Origin: a virus
Direction: 5' to 3' (one strand)
Virus record (IMG/VR): IMGVR_UViG_3300037796_000222
Span: 1-34,814 of that record
Length of the DNA: 34,814 nucleotides
Part shown: positions 1 to 34,814 of the stretch, one piece after another
Numbering within the stretch: position 1 is the stretch's first letter
How the letters are laid out: every line of letters starts with the position of its first letter
The notes under the pieces: model-generated
What the model was told of the DNA's origin: nothing
Seen by the model: only the letters and a program-made list of their open reading frames with translations
The model's database searches: none
Position numbers and translations under genes: made by a program

Positions 1-562
1 GATCACCGCGCGGCAGCTGATAATGTGGCAATTTCGCGCCACGGAGGTCCGCGTGATGGAGGTACGCGTGACGGGGATTCGCGTGACGAAGATTCGCGTG
101 ACGGAGGTCCGCGTCACTGAGGTCCGCGCCACTGAGGTCCACATCACGGAGGTCCGCATGACGGAGGCACGCGTAACTGAGGGTCGCGTCACTGAGGGTC
201 GCGCCACTGAGGTACACGTGACGGAGGTCCGCGTGATGGAGGTACGCGCCACGGAGGTTCGCGTCACTGAGATACGCGTCACGGAGGTACGCATGACGGA
301 GGTTCGCGCCACTGAGGGACACGCCACTGAGGTACGAGTGACGGAGGTCCGCGTAACTGAGGTTCGCGTCACTGAGGTCCACGTAACTGAGGTCCGCGCC
401 ACTGAGGGTCGCATGACGAAGATTCGCGTCACGGAGATTCGCGCCACTGAGGGTCGCATGACGAAGATTCGCGTCACGGAGATTCGCGCGCTCACCGCCT
501 TCACCTCGCAGCCATTTGGCATGTTCCGTTAATATTGCCCGGATTTCATCAGTCGTTGGCAT
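1..562 (-). CDS. Pentapeptide-repeat protein, 3' end beyond window
   Basis: Read from ATG at 562, the minus frame stays open to the window edge (187 codons, no stop). The N-terminus is MPTTDEIRAILTEHAKWLRG and then, from about residue 25, roughly 30 tandem five-residue units of the A(D/N)Lxx type follow (for example ANLRD, ADLSY, AYLRH). This is the pentapeptide-repeat signature, which folds as a right-handed quadrilateral beta-helix. In Qnr and MfpA such helices mimic DNA and bind gyrase; whether this one does is unknown. The SD GGAAGGGGG lies 5 bases before the start. The gene begins inside the 3' end of the preceding gene (34-base overlap). At DNA level it is a clean 15-base tandem repeat, so the plus strand is also open (VRVTE repeats), but that frame has no biological sense. 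The family is near certain; the function is not known. Confidence 0.92.
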   Translation of the reverse strand, partial: MPTTDEIRAILTEHAKWLRGEGGERANLRDANLRHATLSGANLRDANLRHATLSGADLSYVDLSDANLSYADLRHSYLSGVSLSGANLRHAYLRDAYLSDANLRGAYLHHADLRHVYLSGATLSDATLSYACLRHADLRDVDLSGADLSDADLRHANLRHANPRHAYLHHADLRGAKLPHYQLPRGD

Positions 563-1674: not shown

Positions 1675-2153
1675 AGATAGTTCTCCATCACACCCGCAAC
1701 CCGTGGGGCATTCAGCACATCGAAGATTTCCATCGCAATCGCGCCAACAATCTCCGAAGGGCTCTTCCCCGTCACGTCTCTCCTCAACCATGATCGCACC
1801 ACTTCCTCACGGATATCCCAAATTGCTCCCGCGAGATCCGGTGCCGCGAGAGCCAGCTTCAGTGCTCGCTCCTGCTGCGGGTCATCGAGGTGGTAGTGAA
1901 TGGTTACCCTCAACGGATCTGGCTCGGGTCGATCCCCATCCACGAACTCACTCTCATCTCCGTCTACCGGTACCAGCCAATCCCAAGGAACCTTTCCGTA
2001 GGGGCCCCACAGTGCATACGATTCATCATCTGAATACACCGCATTCAGAACCAATCCCTCACCACGATCCTTAAACCGAAACAGAAACTGGTGAGCTAAG
2101 TTCGCATCCCGCCGATGCACGTACTCGGGAATCTCCAGTCTATACTTCTTCAT
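1671..2153 (-). CDS. Hypothetical phage protein with occluded ribosome site
   Basis: This is a 160-residue protein of unknown function. ATG 2153 (MKKYRLEIPEY) sits 6 bases after AGGAGG. Residues 1-90 are rich in beta-forming and acidic residues. The last 60 (ALAAPDLAGAIWDIREEVVR...) look like the helical tail seen in many short phage proteins. It is the first gene of a coupled run of six down to the left edge. Its SD lies wholly inside one arm of a 15-bp inverted repeat (2160-2202), so expression of this run is probably controlled at translation. See the hairpin entries. Confidence 0.75.
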   Translation of the reverse strand: MKKYRLEIPEYVHRRDANLAHQFLFRFKDRGEGLVLNAVYSDDESYALWGPYGKVPWDWLVPVDGDESEFVDGDRPEPDPLRVTIHYHLDDPQQERALKLALAAPDLAGAIWDIREEVVRSWLRRDVTGKSPSEIVGAIAMEIFDVLNAPRVAGVMENYL

Positions 2154-2159
2154 CTCAAA

Positions 2160-2202
2160 CCTCCTCATGTCGCATATTTCTCGATATTGCGACATGAGGA
2201 GG
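2160..2202 (-). promoter_or_regulatory. 15-bp stem-loop burying the SD of the 2153 gene
   Basis: Bases 2160-2174 and 2188-2202 are perfect inverted repeats of 15 bp around a 13-base loop. In the minus-strand RNA the 3' arm ends in GAGGAGG, which is the SD of the gene at 2153, 6 bases before its ATG. If the stem forms, the ribosome site is fully paired. There is no U-tract, so a terminator is unlikely. A DNA operator dyad is the other possible reading. Confidence 0.75.
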
Positions 2203-2231
2203 CCCTCATGTCACGCGTGGTGACATGAGGG
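2203..2231 (-). promoter_or_regulatory. Second 12-bp dyad, competing partner of the SD stem
   Basis: Bases 2203-2214 and 2220-2231 pair perfectly over 12 bp with a 5-base loop. They share the 9-base core CCTCATGTC/GACATGAGG with the adjacent SD-burying stem. In RNA the inner arms of the two hairpins (2204-2212 and 2191-2199) can pair with each other over 9 bp with a 4-base loop. That would release the SD arm. This gives a 1:2, 3:4 versus 2:3 arrangement like an attenuator. Confidence 0.7.
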
Positions 2232-2251
2232 CAGAACGCGCTCGAGGAAGG

Positions 2252-2460
2252 TGGTTTTCTCACGTCACATGGCTCGCTCATCGGCAGTGGGCGTCTCCGC
2301 TCTATTGGCTCGCTCAAACGCCATGGTTTCCTCTATCACAATGGCTCGTTCACTTTTCGTGGTTTTCTCAAGTTCGTTGACTCGCTCGGGCTTAATGGTT
2401 TTCTCAAATACTTTGGCTCGCTCACGTATTATAGGTTTCTCCCGGTGCGTGGCTCCGCTA
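2252..2460. repeat. Twelve-unit 18-bp array with alternating cores
   Basis: Twelve units start exactly every 18 bases (2252, 2270, ... 2450). Each has an 11-base core and a 7-base variable segment. On the plus strand the cores strictly alternate between type A (TGGTTTTCTCA and variants) and type B (TGGCTCGCTCA and variants), so the true period is 36 bases with six copies. The variable segments show no similarity to one another. The array starts 20 bases past the dyads, and its last core covers the stop codon of the HNH-transposase gene. One minus frame reads xxxERAxxxEKT repeats but stops inside the array and has no start of its own. Conservation extends to wobble positions, so I read it as a nucleotide-level element (iteron-like or an RNA). 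Confidence 0.85.
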
Positions 2461-3420
2461 ATACACCCAGCCGCGCTCTTCGGGCTGAATCGTCCGATGT
2501 GCACCGCCGAGCATAGCCTCGGGATACAGCGGGGACGTTTCGAGTCCAGCCGTCGTCCTCCACACCATCCAAAGATCGGCCAAGAAGTGCTTCATCACCG
2601 CTCGCAGCGCCGCCCCATGACGGTGGCCCGGCTTGGTGTCTTTCCACATGCACTCGACGAGCTGGCCTTTGGTGTTGCGAGTTTTCGTCACCTTCTCAGA
2701 GTGTGCAAGCCGGTGCTTCGTGTTGTCGTAGACGAGACGGTACGCACCTCGAGTTTTCATCTGACTGTCCGCCATCGTGTACAACATCGTCCGCAACGAC
2801 TTGTTTCCCCCGCTTACAGTTCCCTTCTCGTACCGTGCATAACTCGGCTTGTCGAGGCCGACGTAGGCCCACAAACTCGACGCATGGCGATCCTTCTCGA
2901 TGTCGATGTAGGCGAGACAGTATGCAATTGTCACATGACCTATTCCCTTCACACCGAGTGCCGAGGTGGCAACACGCCCCTCTACGGTTTCCGTTTCGGC
3001 GATTGCCTTCACCTGTCCAAGGAGCAAGGCGTCGCGGCCTTTCAGCTCTCGGTCAAGTTTCTCTTGCTCTGCCTCCAACCACGCCTTCGTGATCTCGTTC
3101 AGGTGGTCGACGCGCCGCTTGTAGGCGAGAAGCTGATTGTTGGTTCGCAGTGCCAACTTGCGGATTTGCTCACGGTCGTCGATTACCGCTTTGAGCGATG
3201 CCAGCATGTCGCCCCGATCGCGGTGAATACCGTGGCGCTTGAAGTGACAGACCGGGTGTACGATGCGTGTGTTCTCGTCGGTGTACTCCCCGGCCGACGC
3301 CTTCGGGTTGATACGATCGGTGTCAACGAGAGCCGCCTCCTCTGACACCTCCTCACCGCAGATCGCACACGTGCGATTCTGCCTCTCACTAATTTTCGCC
3401 TTCAAGGCTTCTTTCGCCAT
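2458..3420 (-). CDS. HNH-like domain fused to IS110-type transposase domain
   Basis: This is a 320-residue protein. ATG 3420 (MAKEALKAKISERQ) is fixed by AGAGGAGG 5 bases upstream; the longer frame to 3696 runs through the tRNA-like element. Residues 15-65 form an HNH-like zinc module (C18xxC21, TDRIN at 34-38, TDEN, HPVCHFKRHG at 55-64). The usual first catalytic His of a DHI motif is Arg36. Residues 75-150 are charged and helical. Residues 155-285 match the IS116/IS110/IS902 C-terminal domain: the helix-hairpin VKGIGHVTI, then YVGLDKPSYARYEKG and SGGNKSLRTMLY, with Ser193 or Ser203 as candidate nucleophile. The N-terminal DEDD RuvC-like domain of normal IS110 transposases is absent. Neighbours are a structured non-coding stretch upstream and the 18-bp array at its stop. 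It may be a transposase derivative or a domesticated recombinase. Confidence 0.8.
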   Translation of the reverse strand: MAKEALKAKISERQNRTCAICGEEVSEEAALVDTDRINPKASAGEYTDENTRIVHPVCHFKRHGIHRDRGDMLASLKAVIDDREQIRKLALRTNNQLLAYKRRVDHLNEITKAWLEAEQEKLDRELKGRDALLLGQVKAIAETETVEGRVATSALGVKGIGHVTIAYCLAYIDIEKDRHASSLWAYVGLDKPSYARYEKGTVSGGNKSLRTMLYTMADSQMKTRGAYRLVYDNTKHRLAHSEKVTKTRNTKGQLVECMWKDTKPGHRHGAALRAVMKHFLADLWMVWRTTAGLETSPLYPEAMLGGAHRTIQPEERGWVY

Positions 3421-3670
3421 CACAACCTCCTCTTGTGTGATATAGGCCCGTGCCGCACACAGCGACACGAGCCCAAACCGCTTCTCGTACGGCACCGGGA
3501 TCGTAGCGACTTCAACGAGCCTTCGCCCTCTCTCCGGAACGCTCCTATTGTTAATAAATGGTTCAACGCCCGATGACTCGGAGTCCACCACCGGACGAGA
3601 GGCCCCGTGCGGCCTTAATAATGCGGCGAGAGTCGTTCGGGGCACGGCCCTCGGACTCATAATGCCGTTG
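3421..3670 (-). other. Non-coding stretch with nested inverted repeats
   Basis: These are 250 bases between the tRNA-like element and the HNH-transposase start, with no convincing gene. GAGTCC (3581-3586) can pair with GGACTC (3653-3658). Inside that, GCCCC (3602-3606) pairs with GGGGC (3639-3643), or CCGTGC (3605-3610) with GCACGG (3642-3647). In IS110-family elements the non-coding end upstream of the transposase encodes the bridge RNA, so this is where such an RNA would be expected. That is an inference; no folding was computed. Confidence 0.4.
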
Positions 3671-3808
3671 TGCGGTGGCAGGATTCGAACCTGCAACGGG
3701 GCTTACAACGAACGCGGAAGATTGCTGACAAGCGCGAAGTCAACCAACGGGGTCCGCTGCCCATAGCCGCTTGTGTCGCTATTGCGTCTACCATTCCGCC
3801 ACACCGCA
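3671..3808 (-). tRNA. Atypical 138-base tRNA-like element, isotype unresolved
   Basis: In minus sense the 5' end TGCGGTG pairs perfectly with the 3' end CACCGCA (7-bp acceptor, extendable by one G-C). Then come TG, a Leu-type D arm (GCG GAATGGTAGA CGC) and, at the far end, a canonical T arm (GCAGG TTCGAAT CCTGC). The middle is abnormal. The anticodon stem ATAGC/GCTAT encloses a 10-base loop (GACACAAGCG) with no U33, and about 66 bases separate it from the T arm. That long arm has its own nested pairing (GGGC/GCCC, GCGGA/TCCGC, GTTGAC/GTCAGC). CCA is not encoded. It could be a type II tRNA carrying an insertion or intron, a degenerate tRNA, or a tRNA mimic. The anticodon cannot be assigned. 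Confidence 0.65.
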
Positions 3809-3870
3809 CACCCCGCTTTCGCCATGCTGGTAGCGGGACACCTTGATAGCCGTTTTTAACGTGGTGTACG

Positions 3871-3996
3871 TCATCCACGATCTCGGTCAGAGAACTCATG
3901 TTCATCACTAGCCATTGTAAGCAGTGCGACTATAATGAACCCAATAGCCGCTCCCACCGTTAAGCCTACCCACAATCCTACCCACAACATGATCAT
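3871..3996 (-). CDS. 41-residue membrane microprotein
   Basis: ATG 3996 begins MIMLWVGLWVGLTVGAAIGF, one glycine-rich transmembrane helix (about residues 3-27) followed by a charged tail (SDEHEFSDRDRG). The ATG overlaps the previous stop as ATGA and is preceded by GGGGGTGA, so it is probably translated by coupling. Single-helix phage proteins of this layout may be lysis, superinfection or membrane-anchor factors; nothing here decides between these. Confidence 0.7.
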   Translation of the reverse strand: MIMLWVGLWVGLTVGAAIGFIIVALLTMASDEHEFSDRDRG

Positions 3997-10978: not shown

Positions 10979-11060
10979 AGCACACCTCCAAGTGTTTATT
11001 CGGAGCCCCGCTGACTCCTCTCGGCCTGCCTCATCAGGACGGGTCGGCCAACTCCCGCCG

Positions 11061-11078
11061 ACGCCCCCGTAGGGACGT
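11061..11078 (-). other. Intercistronic hairpin, UACG loop
   Basis: 11061-11067 with 11072-11078, loop UACG in minus RNA, with one U-G pair that is C-A on the plus strand. A competing stem GTCGGC/GCCGAC (11043-11048 with 11057-11062) overlaps it. Confidence 0.65.
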
Positions 11079-11090
11079 TTCGGCTATCGT

Positions 11091-11288: not shown

Positions 11289-11351
11289 AAGCGCCCTCCT
11301 CAGTAATATGTCTGACGTACCTCATCAGGTCGGGATCGTCATTCCCCGACG

Positions 11352-11369
11352 ACCGGGCCGCAGCCCGGT
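11352..11369 (-). other. Intercistronic hairpin, UGCG loop
   Basis: Perfect 7-bp stem ACCGGGC/GCCCGGT (11352-11358 with 11363-11369) closed by C-UGCG-G in minus RNA, just after the stop of the 11961 gene. Confidence 0.7.
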
Positions 11370-11376
11370 TTCGGCT

Positions 11377-22537: not shown

Positions 22538-22718
22538 ATTCCTCCTCCAACACTTGATCGATAAGCTCCGCTACTATCTGCGGGATCAACGAAGTCCCAC
22601 CCCAGTAATTACGCTTTTCATCGGCAAACCGAAGCCGAAATCGCTCAAGGATGACCTCAGCAATCCGATTGGCCATCTCCGAACAGTTCCGACACGGCCG
22701 CTTCTTCCTTCGTCCCAT
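22479..22718 (-). CDS. Small CxxC protein
   Basis: This is a 79-residue protein from ATG 22718 (MGRRKKRPCRNCSEMANRIA), SD GGAGGTAG, starting 2 bases after the helicase stop. A basic CxxC start (residues 9-12) is followed by helical, acidic sequence. A half zinc-knuckle might be completed by dimerisation. No family is recognised. Confidence 0.7.
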   Translation of the reverse strand: MGRRKKRPCRNCSEMANRIAEVILERFRLRFADEKRNYWGGTSLIPQIVAELIDQVLEEEYERTEKESGGSKAGNEGAK

Positions 22719-30290: not shown

Positions 30291-31376
30291 CTATAGATCA
30301 TCAGTTTGCAACTCCTGAATGTAGCCACGCTCGTCCATCTTATCGAGACCCTTGCGGGCGATCTCGTGGAGCTTGTCGAACTCTTTGCTCTTACCGACCC
30401 CGGAGAGAAGCATGTTGATCTTGCACCGGGTCAGCTTCTTGTTGTAGTAGCTCGATCGGGCAATGTCCGGGGCACGCTTGGTGGCACGCTCGACCGCCTG
30501 AAACGCCTCCTCGACAAAATCGAGTATGCGATGCTGAGTACGCCACCCGTTCGGCATCCCCACGGAAACGATTGCGCTTCGAGTGGTGCCGATGTCCAGC
30601 CGCCCAAAGGTGAGCGAGCCATTCTTGATCTCACGAACGAGCCCGTCGGAATCAGGCTTAGTGAGGGTGACCTCACACACGTCCACGAACCCCATCCGGG
30701 AGAACAGCACCCGCCGCACGTCGTTGGCGTCGATAGCCTTGTACCCCGCCGCCATGTCTACGTACTCCTGATACTCATTGAGCCGAGACATCATCTCGAA
30801 GCGCTTCAGGGCCCGGGAGATGCTCAGATTCACCCGCCCCCAGTAGCTGTCACCGGTGCGACCGTAGCGGTCAATGCAGTACTGATTGTCCACCGGGAGC
30901 ACCGATATGCGACGCTTCGAGGTACGCAGGGTATAAGTCGTACGGATGCGCTCAAGAGTTTTGATCGAGTTCGGTACAGCCGGTACCCCCTCGCGGCGCT
31001 CCGGGAGTGTGTATACCAACAGCACCTCGTATTTCGCCCGGATGAGATAGTCGATCACCGGAAACAGATACCCGACCCCGGAACCACCACCGCCCCCGAC
31101 GCAGACGACCACGTACTGTGCCCGGGTGAAGTTCACGTTTCGGGTGAGAAACGACTCAACCTCTGCCCAGCGTTCTTTCACCACCTGCTCCCCGTACTTG
31201 GGGTCGCGACCGGTACCGCCGGACTCGAGCACCAGCATCCGATCCTTGGCCACGTCGAACTGGCTGAAATCGATCCCGGCGAGGTTCATGTAAACCCCGT
31301 CAATGCCGAAATCCTCTACGAACGTCTGTGCGATCCTCGACCCGCCTTGGCCGAGACCAATTGCAAAATCAATCAT
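30291..31376 (-). CDS. Tubulin/FtsZ-like GTPase
   Basis: This is a 361-residue protein from ATG 31376 (MIDFAIGLGQGGSRIAQTFV), overlapping the ParB-like gene by 8 bases, SD GGGAGG. The glycine-rich first loop GLGQGGSRIA (7-16), the tubulin signature VGGGGGSGVG (93-102) and the loop YTLPERREG (122-130) build the nucleotide pocket. The T7-like segment AIDANDVRRVLFSRMG (214-229) aligns with FtsZ VDFADVRTVMSEMG and keeps two catalytic acids, so polymer-driven GTP hydrolysis is plausible. It is closer in these motifs to FtsZ/CetZ than to PhuZ. Phage tubulins centre or move DNA or capsids, and TubZ segregates plasmids. Confidence 0.88.
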   Translation of the reverse strand: MIDFAIGLGQGGSRIAQTFVEDFGIDGVYMNLAGIDFSQFDVAKDRMLVLESGGTGRDPKYGEQVVKERWAEVESFLTRNVNFTRAQYVVVCVGGGGGSGVGYLFPVIDYLIRAKYEVLLVYTLPERREGVPAVPNSIKTLERIRTTYTLRTSKRRISVLPVDNQYCIDRYGRTGDSYWGRVNLSISRALKRFEMMSRLNEYQEYVDMAAGYKAIDANDVRRVLFSRMGFVDVCEVTLTKPDSDGLVREIKNGSLTFGRLDIGTTRSAIVSVGMPNGWRTQHRILDFVEEAFQAVERATKRAPDIARSSYYNKKLTRCKINMLLSGVGKSKEFDKLHEIARKGLDKMDERGYIQELQTDDL

Positions 31377-33705: not shown

Positions 33706-34814
33706 GCAACCGACCCCTTCAGTGCCGCGAGACTCTTCGTCCCGTCGGCGGCCCGCTGCTGCGAGCGAGTGTTAAGCTGCATGTAATCCAGATTCGGGGT
33801 TAGTGTGATGAAATGATTCTTCGGCAGAGGGCTATTCCTCAATTTCAACATTTGGAGTGAAAGAGGATAGAGACTATCCTCGGTTCGAATAATGGCCGCG
33901 ACAATTGGCGCGGTTTCTCCGATGGCCCGGGCATACTTGAGGTCTTTCAGTGCGTACTCTGTTCGCTTGTAGGCGTCATCGGTGACCTGATTCGCCGTCC
34001 ACCCGGCGATGTTATGTGACTGATAGAGACCCTTCACGTCCCAGACGATGTCGGCTTGACTGTCCCAGTTCCGCGAGCTGCCCCGAACCTCGGTGGTTGG
34101 CTTCATGATGTTGAGGTAGTCGATGAACACCGCATCGACCGGATTCCCGGTGTCCTCGGCGACCTTGAGCATGGTGTTCTCAATGTCCTCGGTTGTGAAG
34201 CCCCGCGAGAAGGTCGCGATGTAGAGCCAGTTGTCGAACTCGGCCTTGTAGCGCTCGATGGTCGAGTCCCACCTCGAGTAGTCGGTCTCATCGAGGGCCC
34301 CGACACGGAACTTGTTCGCGGTGATCTCGGCGAGGTGCGCGTCTATGCGGAAGCCGAGGTCTCCCTTGCCCATCTCACCGGAGACGAGCAGGCAGTTGTA
34401 CCCAGCCAACCACGACGAGATGGCGAAATGTACAAGCCCAACAGTCTTACCGATGCCGGGGACTCCGGCCAACACGCCAAACTCACCACGCATGAGGCCC
34501 CCGGTGCTGGAATCAAACTGGTAAATACCAGTTGGGAATCCGGGGCCCTGATCAGAATCTTCCTGCTGGGCCCGCTTCTCCTCGACGATCTCGAGACGCT
34601 CTGTGTAGTCCTCAAGATAGTATCCTTCAGTGCGCCGGTCTTCGAGCTTCGCCGGACGACTGAGCACCCGCATCTTCTCCTGTGCCTGCTCGAGGTCAAA
34701 GTTCTCAATGGACTCAATGATCTCACCCGCACCCTCCACGAGGCGGCGGCTTGCATCCATCTGCAGAAGCAGGGTCACGAGGTGCCGAGCTGACTGATCG
34801 GTGAGGTCGTCAAT
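33702..34814 (-). CDS. DnaB-type replicative helicase, 5' end beyond window
   Basis: The frame is open from the right edge (34814) to a stop at 33702, at least 370 residues. A GTG at 34778 is only an internal candidate, because the codons above it continue a DnaB-like N-terminal helix (LTDQSARHLVTLLLQMDASR). The RecA-fold core shows GEFGVLAGVPGIGKTVGL (Walker A), LLVSGEMGKGDLGFR, DAVFIDYLNIMKP (Walker B) and WTANQVTDDAYKRTE. It unwinds DNA ahead of the UDG-PolA polymerase and partners with the primase just downstream. Confidence 0.9.
   Translation of the reverse strand: MDDLTDQSARHLVTLLLQMDASRRLVEGAGEIIESIENFDLEQAQEKMRVLSRPAKLEDRRTEGYYLEDYTERLEIVEEKRAQQEDSDQGPGFPTGIYQFDSSTGGLMRGEFGVLAGVPGIGKTVGLVHFAISSWLAGYNCLLVSGEMGKGDLGFRIDAHLAEITANKFRVGALDETDYSRWDSTIERYKAEFDNWLYIATFSRGFTTEDIENTMLKVAEDTGNPVDAVFIDYLNIMKPTTEVRGSSRNWDSQADIVWDVKGLYQSHNIAGWTANQVTDDAYKRTEYALKDLKYARAIGETAPIVAAIIRTEDSLYPLSLQMLKLRNSPLPKNHFITLTPNLDYMQLNTRSQQRAADGTKSLAALKGSVA

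What the first reader, a model, noticed from the sequence alone, without database searches (positions are those of the whole stretch)
2458..3420. HNH domain joined to IS110 C-terminal transposase domain without the RuvC domain
Normal IS110 transposases combine a DEDD RuvC-like domain with a C-terminal serine domain and are guided by a bridge RNA. Here the RuvC-like half is replaced by an HNH-like zinc module (with Arg for the first catalytic His), while the helix-hairpin and serine-containing blocks are kept. The gene has its own perfect SD and is intact. This may be a distinct recombinase or nuclease class, or an inactive phage regulator.
Basis: partly seen in the sequence, partly recalled or inferred. 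Interest (0 to 1): 0.8.

Follow-up and report, generated by a model that had tools for sequence, protein, structure and literature searches.

The report
Phage RNA-guided DNA-cutting system (TIGR-TasH)
The odd phage protein is TasH, a recently described RNA-guided DNA scissors, and it sits directly against its own array of six two-part guide RNAs; it is a new, diverged member of a known system whose natural targets nobody knows yet.

Summary
The ORF at 2458-3420(-) is real, intact and has a perfect SD. It is not a new kind of recombinase. It is TasH, the HNH-armed effector of TIGR-Tas (described 2025): NCBIfam TIGR_Tas_endo 112 bits against a cutoff of 100, 49% identity to Salicola phage TasH (PDB E=1e-94), and an AlphaFold model that superposes on the TasH-tigRNA-DNA cryo-EM structure (TM 0.81-0.84). 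No DEDD domain is hidden: residues 71-141 are the Nop coiled coil.

It overlaps the TasH stop codon and runs from 2459 to 2234(-): six exact 36-nt units of edge repeat, 8-nt spacer A, loop repeat, 8-nt spacer B. All six predicted tigRNAs keep the box C/D pairs; one does so through a compensatory change split over two successive edge repeats.

The Arg in place of the first catalytic His is invariant in 25/25 TasH proteins, including the experimentally active one, so it does not mark inactivity. All 25 distinct TasH loci examined carry such arrays. TasH is the only clearly shared gene among these phages, and spacers turn over completely even at 85% TasH identity.

I found no convincing natural target and no reproducible self-avoidance. 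Verdict: new member of a known kind.

The parts
2458..3420 (-). tasH: 320-aa HNH-Nop RNA-guided endonuclease
   Evidence: NCBIfam TIGR_Tas_endo E 3e-32; PDB TasH E 1.4e-94; Foldseek TM 0.81/0.84 to 9w04
3426..3431 (-). Shine-Dalgarno AGGAGG of tasH
   Evidence: sequence AGGAGGTTGTGATG
3214..3408 (-). HNH nuclease domain (about residues 5-69; D33, [D/H]35, R36, N50, H59, H63)
   Evidence: conservation in 25 TasH
2998..3210 (-). coiled-coil dimerisation region (residues 71-141), in the place where a DEDD domain was to be sought
   Evidence: two long helices in the AlphaFold model, superposed on TasH/TasR
2548..2985 (-). Nop / IS110-like C-terminal RNA-binding domain (residues 146-291)
   Evidence: Pfam Transposase_20 27 bits against cutoff 21.3; TasR and IS621 matches
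2234..2459 (-). TIGR array: 6 units of 36 nt (10-nt edge, 8-nt spacer A, 10-nt loop, 8-nt spacer B) plus a degenerate terminal edge at 2243-2234; the first edge repeat overlaps the tasH stop codon
   Evidence: 36-nt spacing of 5 repeat copies; unit table and box C/D pairs; column conservation against background
2202..2232 (-). 13-bp perfect hairpin directly after the array, in the place where published arrays have a terminator; no U-tract
   Evidence: I2; z -8.3 for the hairpin pair; no terminator called
2160..2202 (-). 15-bp perfect hairpin whose 3' arm contains the SD (GAGGAGG) of the next gene (ORF 1671-2153)
   Evidence: (I1)

Best explanation
This is a TIGR-TasH system on a tailed-phage contig. 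Shown here by sequence and structure comparison: the protein is TasH, and a six-unit TIGR array in the same orientation overlaps its stop codon. Inferred from the characterised orthologue: TasH and array are co-transcribed; TasH binds the transcript and a host RNase trims it to about 36-nt tigRNAs running from the middle of one edge repeat to the middle of the next; a TasH dimer holds one tigRNA; spacer A pairs with one DNA strand and spacer B with the other at a site reading 5'-A-rc(B)-3', with no PAM or TAM; the two HNH domains cut both strands, giving 8-nt 3' overhangs. Most likely biological role (least certain step): attacking or curing competing mobile elements in the same host, since the module is a sporadic accessory gene and its spacers change much faster than its effector.
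For: Family: NF052498 TIGR_Tas_endo 112.3 bits, cutoff 100; PDB TasH E 1.4e-94 over residues 10-319; model pLDDT 84.5 matching TasH-tigRNA-dsDNA 9w04 (TM 0.81/0.84), then TasR (0.52), then IS621 (0.47). Array. Universality: 25/25 deduplicated TasH loci carry at least 3 same-strand 36-nt units near the gene, mostly within 1.5 kb. RNA pairing: over 317 units, the loop box C/D pair covaries within one loop copy (296/317 WC, z 5.2), while the edge pair covaries between successive edges of the same tigRNA (z 2.4, P 0.0085) and not within one copy (z -0.8); here edge 3 C-to-T is met by edge 4 G-to-A. Catalysis: D33, R36 and N50 in 25/25, H59 and H63 in 24/25; Salicola TasH cleavage is HNH- and tigRNA-dependent (PMC12045711). 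Accessory status: none of 11 TerL relatives has Tas and TasH is the only gene clearly shared by TasH phages. Spacer turnover: no shared spacer pair, even at 85% TasH identity.
Against: No expression or cleavage was tested. Two loop repeats (units 1 and 5) and the first and last edges are degenerate. No promoter or canonical terminator was found. No convincing target was found in the TasH phages, the terminase relatives or IMG/VR, so the competition role is inference. In E. coli, TasR caused plasmid loss but not phage or conjugation resistance (PMC12045711).
Confidence: 0.92

Rival explanations
1. IS110-family transposase or recombinase that exchanged its DEDD domain for HNH and moves DNA with a bridge RNA.
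For: Pfam Transposase_20 above cutoff; remote IS621 structural match, TM 0.47.
Against: Far closer to TasH (TM 0.81, 49% identity) than to IS621; no DEDD domain; catalytic serine not conserved; the adjacent RNA is a six-unit array, not a single two-loop bridge RNA; related phages without it share no flanking genes in that region that could define element ends.
Confidence: 0.02
2. Catalytically dead TasH acting as an RNA-guided DNA binder (TasA-like regulator or roadblock), because Arg replaces the first catalytic His.
For: R36 is aligned with the second His of a canonical HNH; one relative (L039) has lost H59 and H63, so dead forms may exist.
Against: R36 is invariant in 25/25, including the active Salicola enzyme; all other catalytic residues are present here.
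Confidence: 0.07
3. Functional TasH used against the host chromosome or to regulate the phage's own genome rather than against competing elements.
For: Host unknown; natural targets unknown; other phage nucleases degrade host DNA.
Against: No near-match (2 mismatches or fewer) to the window outside the array in the predicted geometry; 0 exact self-matches for 338 units in 25 contigs. The host genome could not be tested.
Confidence: 0.35
4. The 36-nt repeats are a chance or coding repeat, and TasH is an orphan.
For: Array short (6 units) with some degenerate copies.
Against: 19 of 36 columns conserved against a maximum of 11 elsewhere; same repeat grammar as 24 other TasH loci; compensatory pair change.
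Confidence: 0.01

Closest known systems
TasH of Salicola phage CGphi29 (SpTIGR-TasH; PDB 9w04, 21kl and others)
   Same: Same HNH-coiled coil-Nop architecture, 49% identity over 99% of the protein; array downstream of the gene; 36-nt units with 8-nt spacers; edge AAGCGAGCCA against GAGCGAGCCA here
   Different: Loop repeat AAGACAACCA there, GAGAAAACCA here; 6 units rather than about 11; no spacer in common; different phage backbone; separate long branch in the TasH tree
TasR (TaTIGR, PDB 9mty)
   Same: Nop and coiled-coil domains, dual-repeat array, tandem-spacer guides
   Different: RuvC instead of HNH; 9-nt spacers; TM only 0.52
IS110/IS621 bridge-RNA recombinases
   Same: Homologous RNA-binding C-terminal domain
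   Different: DEDD plus catalytic serine, bridge RNA, recombination; TM 0.47
IscB / Cas9 HNH nucleases
   Same: RNA-guided, HNH fold; faint IscB hit (14 bits, cutoff 175)
   Different: No Nop domain; single-spacer guide with PAM/TAM; RuvC partner domain

Membership tests
TIGR-Tas (TasH type) | Nop-domain Tas protein above the family model cutoff | tested here: met
   NF052498 112.3 bits against 100; Foldseek TasH TM 0.81-0.84
TIGR-Tas (TasH type) | N-terminal HNH domain with catalytic residues | tested here: met
   D33, D35, R36, N50, H59, H63 all present; same set as the active Salicola TasH
TIGR-Tas (TasH type) | Adjacent array of alternating edge and loop repeats (8-12 nt) with about 9-nt spacers | tested here: met
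   six 36-nt units at 2459-2244, 10-nt repeats, 8-nt spacers
TIGR-Tas (TasH type) | Truncated edge repeats at both array ends, then a rho-independent terminator | tested here: inconclusive
   terminal edges degenerate; a 13-bp hairpin follows but without a U-tract
TIGR-Tas (TasH type) | box C/D base pairs within the loop repeat and between successive edges | tested here: met
   6/6 units; statistics on 317 units
TIGR-Tas (TasH type) | Processing to 36-nt tigRNA and tandem-spacer DNA cleavage | not testable with these tools
   needs RNA-seq and cleavage assay
IS110 transposase | N-terminal DEDD RuvC-like domain | tested here: not met
   HNH plus coiled coil instead
IS110 transposase | Catalytic serine in the C-terminal domain | tested here: not met
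   no conserved serine at the IS621 YESG motif; the gapped alignment is ambiguous by a few residues, S193 is S/A/R in the family
IS110 transposase | Bridge RNA with two internal loops | tested here: not met
   array RNA not more structured than shuffles (z -0.78); tigRNA array instead

The most novel reading that the evidence does not exclude
TasH-TIGR is a module that hops between otherwise unrelated phages and serves as a reprogrammable weapon in phage-phage or phage-plasmid competition, with guides replaced by an unknown, adaptation-gene-free mechanism. The evidence that allows this: TasH is the only clearly shared gene among these phages, the gene is absent from terminase relatives, and spacers turn over completely while the effector is still 85% identical. 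No target was found to prove it.
Probability: 0.4. Interest if true: 0.75.

Novelty: new member of a known kind. Interest (0 to 1): 0.42.

Why it matters
TIGR-Tas has no known natural targets, no known spacer-acquisition route and few characterised TasH enzymes. This locus is a compact diverged TasH (separate branch, about 50% identical to all others), with a minimal six-guide array on a phage contig, useful as a test enzyme. The comparative set gathered here (25 loci, over 300 units) gives unit-level covariation showing that the guide's edge pair forms between two successive repeats, and shows fast spacer turnover. That makes the spacer-origin question testable in dated metagenome series.

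Tried and rejected
(1) Self-avoidance of spacers: strong in the first 10 loci (8 near-matches against 21.9 expected) but absent in 15 new contigs (27 against 27.9); rejected as unreplicated. (2) Targets among 1.03 Mb of TasH-phage contigs: one exact A-rc(B) hit, against 0, 2 and 2 in control geometries. (3) Targets in 494 kb of terminase relatives: none with 1 mismatch or fewer, and no excess at 2-3. (4) IMG/VR scans of units 6 and 5: 10 and 35 exact hits (gap 0-2), judged about chance for 16 specified bases; none of the hit loci shared genes with the window phage beyond one weak UvsX match. (5) TasH in 84,980 prokaryote genomes: no hit, but the pattern prefilter is coarse, so absence is not shown. 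(6) Rfam around the locus: nothing. (7) IS110 recombinase and dead-nuclease readings: see rivals.

Full report
OBSERVATION. The ORF 2458-3420(-) encodes 320 aa, with AGGAGG 5 nt before the ATG. Pfam sees Transposase_20 at 157-224 (27 bits, cutoff 21.3) and a sub-threshold HNH at 18-63. PHROGs gives 'transposase' for 73-311 and many HNH families for the N-terminus. Two details are not: the CxxC 'zinc' pair is peculiar to this protein (Cys21 in 1 of 25), and the recombinase serine is not conserved.

IDENTITY. NCBIfam TIGR_Tas_endo matches above its curated cutoff (112.3 against 100 bits). The best solved structure is TasH (E 1.4e-94 over residues 10-319). The experimentally studied TasH is that of Salicola phage CGphi29 (PMC12045711), which is also the best phage-database hit here (49% identity). 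An AlphaFold model from the window protein and eight relatives (pLDDT 84.5) matches TasH-tigRNA-dsDNA (TM 0.81/0.84), then TasR (0.52), then IS621 (0.47). Residues 71-141, where a hidden DEDD domain was to be sought, are two long helices, the coiled coil of the Nop fold.

THE ARRAY. Directly after tasH, overlapping its stop codon, lies an array on the same strand: five 45-nt copies at exact 36-nt spacing, parsed as six units of 10-nt edge (GAGCGAGCCA), 8-nt spacer A, 10-nt loop (GAGAAAACCA), 8-nt spacer B, then a degenerate terminal edge. In the best 216-nt window 19 of 36 columns are conserved in at least 5 of 6 units; the rest of the window never exceeds 11. This is the grammar of a dual-repeat TIGR array; like SpTIGR, it has 8-nt spacers. 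The array transcript alone is no more structured than shuffles (z -0.78), as expected for tigRNAs. A 13-bp hairpin without U-tract follows, then a 15-bp hairpin that buries the SD of the next gene.

RNA PAIRING. Faure et al. saw a box C/D pair in the loop repeat, and edge pairs formed between the two edge halves of one tigRNA. Tested on 317 units from 25 loci, with permutation inside each locus: the loop pair (positions 2-7) covaries within one loop copy (296/317 Watson-Crick, z 5.2). The edge pair 2-7 covaries between an edge and the NEXT edge (z 2.4, P 0.0085) but not within one copy (z -0.8). The second edge pair 3-6 behaves alike (z 2.7 against 1.7). Among the 25 position pairs tested, 3-5 between edges also reaches z 2.9, so the edge signal is supportive rather than conclusive. 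In the window, edge 3 has C-to-T and edge 4 the matching G-to-A, so tigRNA 3 keeps its pair as U-A; all six units keep all pairs.

CATALYSIS. Aligned to a group II intron maturase HNH, D35-R36 sit where that enzyme has His-His. In 25 TasH proteins D33, R36 and N50 are invariant, position 35 is D, H or N, and H59 and H63 are in 24 of 25. [quoted passage not shown] The Arg is therefore a family trait, not a lesion.

FAMILY AND MOBILITY. Two alignment-driven scans found 27 IMG/VR contigs with near full-length TasH. A 36-nt array lies beside the gene in all of them. After removing near-duplicates and adding the window and Salicola phage, 25 of 25 loci have at least 3 parsed units near the gene, all in the gene's orientation, downstream, upstream or both. 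The window TasH is a separate long branch, not a close ally of Salicola TasH. TasH is the only gene clearly shared by these phages; other matches are weak (under about 31% identity, universal replication genes). Eleven terminase relatives of the window phage share its packaging and replication block (about 11-35 kb) but none of the left accessory region, and none has Tas; several of those contigs are incomplete. No spacer pair is shared between any two loci, even at 85% TasH identity.

TARGETS. From the 'C-5 rule' and 8-nt 3' overhangs the protospacer reads 5'-A-rc(B)-3', gap 0-2. Searches of the window, 1.03 Mb of TasH-phage contigs, 494 kb of terminase relatives and two IMG/VR scans gave nothing judged beyond chance. 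An apparent avoidance of self-targets in the first ten loci did not replicate in fifteen more. The natural target, and hence the biological role, stays open.

MECHANISM. Shown: gene, array, pairing rules, family conservation. Inferred from the characterised orthologue: co-transcription, host-RNase trimming to about 36 nt, a TasH dimer holding one tigRNA, strand-split pairing, double-strand cut. Guessed: use against competing elements.

VERDICT. New member of a known kind.

Noticed in passing
window 11020-11085(-) and 11311-11376(-): Two type II hammerhead ribozymes (Rfam RF02276, 50.2 and 39.5 bits) about 290 nt apart between two ORFs; in tandem they could release a small RNA.
   Followed up: no
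window 2145-2245(-): Two adjacent perfect hairpins (13 and 15 bp) that share CATGAGG/CCTCATG motifs and could pair alternatively; the second buries the SD of ORF 1671-2153. Folding z-score -8.3. Possible translational switch or processing site.
   Followed up: partly
window 3669-3809(-): tRNA-like element just upstream of tasH with good acceptor and T arms but an extra 45-nt stretch; ARAGORN calls it only when introns are allowed (tRNA-Thr(tgt)), and Rfam gives no hit.
   Followed up: partly
window 30291-31376(-): Tubulin/FtsZ-like GTPase (Pfam E 9e-7, just under the curated cutoff) next to a ParB-like gene; no match in the phage collection, but present in some terminase relatives.
   Followed up: partly
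window 33-489: Tandem repeat of period 15/45 nt, about 10 copies of 45, inside open frames on both strands.
   Followed up: no
L039 (IMGVR_UViG_3300032163_000079), TasH at 2983-3924: A TasH that has lost H59 (to R) and H63 (to Q), probably a catalytically dead HNH, yet it keeps an array.
   Followed up: no
G019 (IMGVR_UViG_3300033145_000788), about 38878-40760: A second, diverged Tas-like ORF (39677-40273, 33% identity) with its own arrays and different repeats (TTGCGAGCTA / TTGAAATCTA) on the same contig as a TasH: two TIGR systems in one phage.
   Followed up: no
G003 (IMGVR_UViG_3300020048_000070): unit at 34190 and site at 22579: Spacers A and B of one unit occur joined head to tail (A+B, 16/16) elsewhere in the same contig, in a geometry not expected to be cut; may be chance or a hint of spacer origin.
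   Followed up: no
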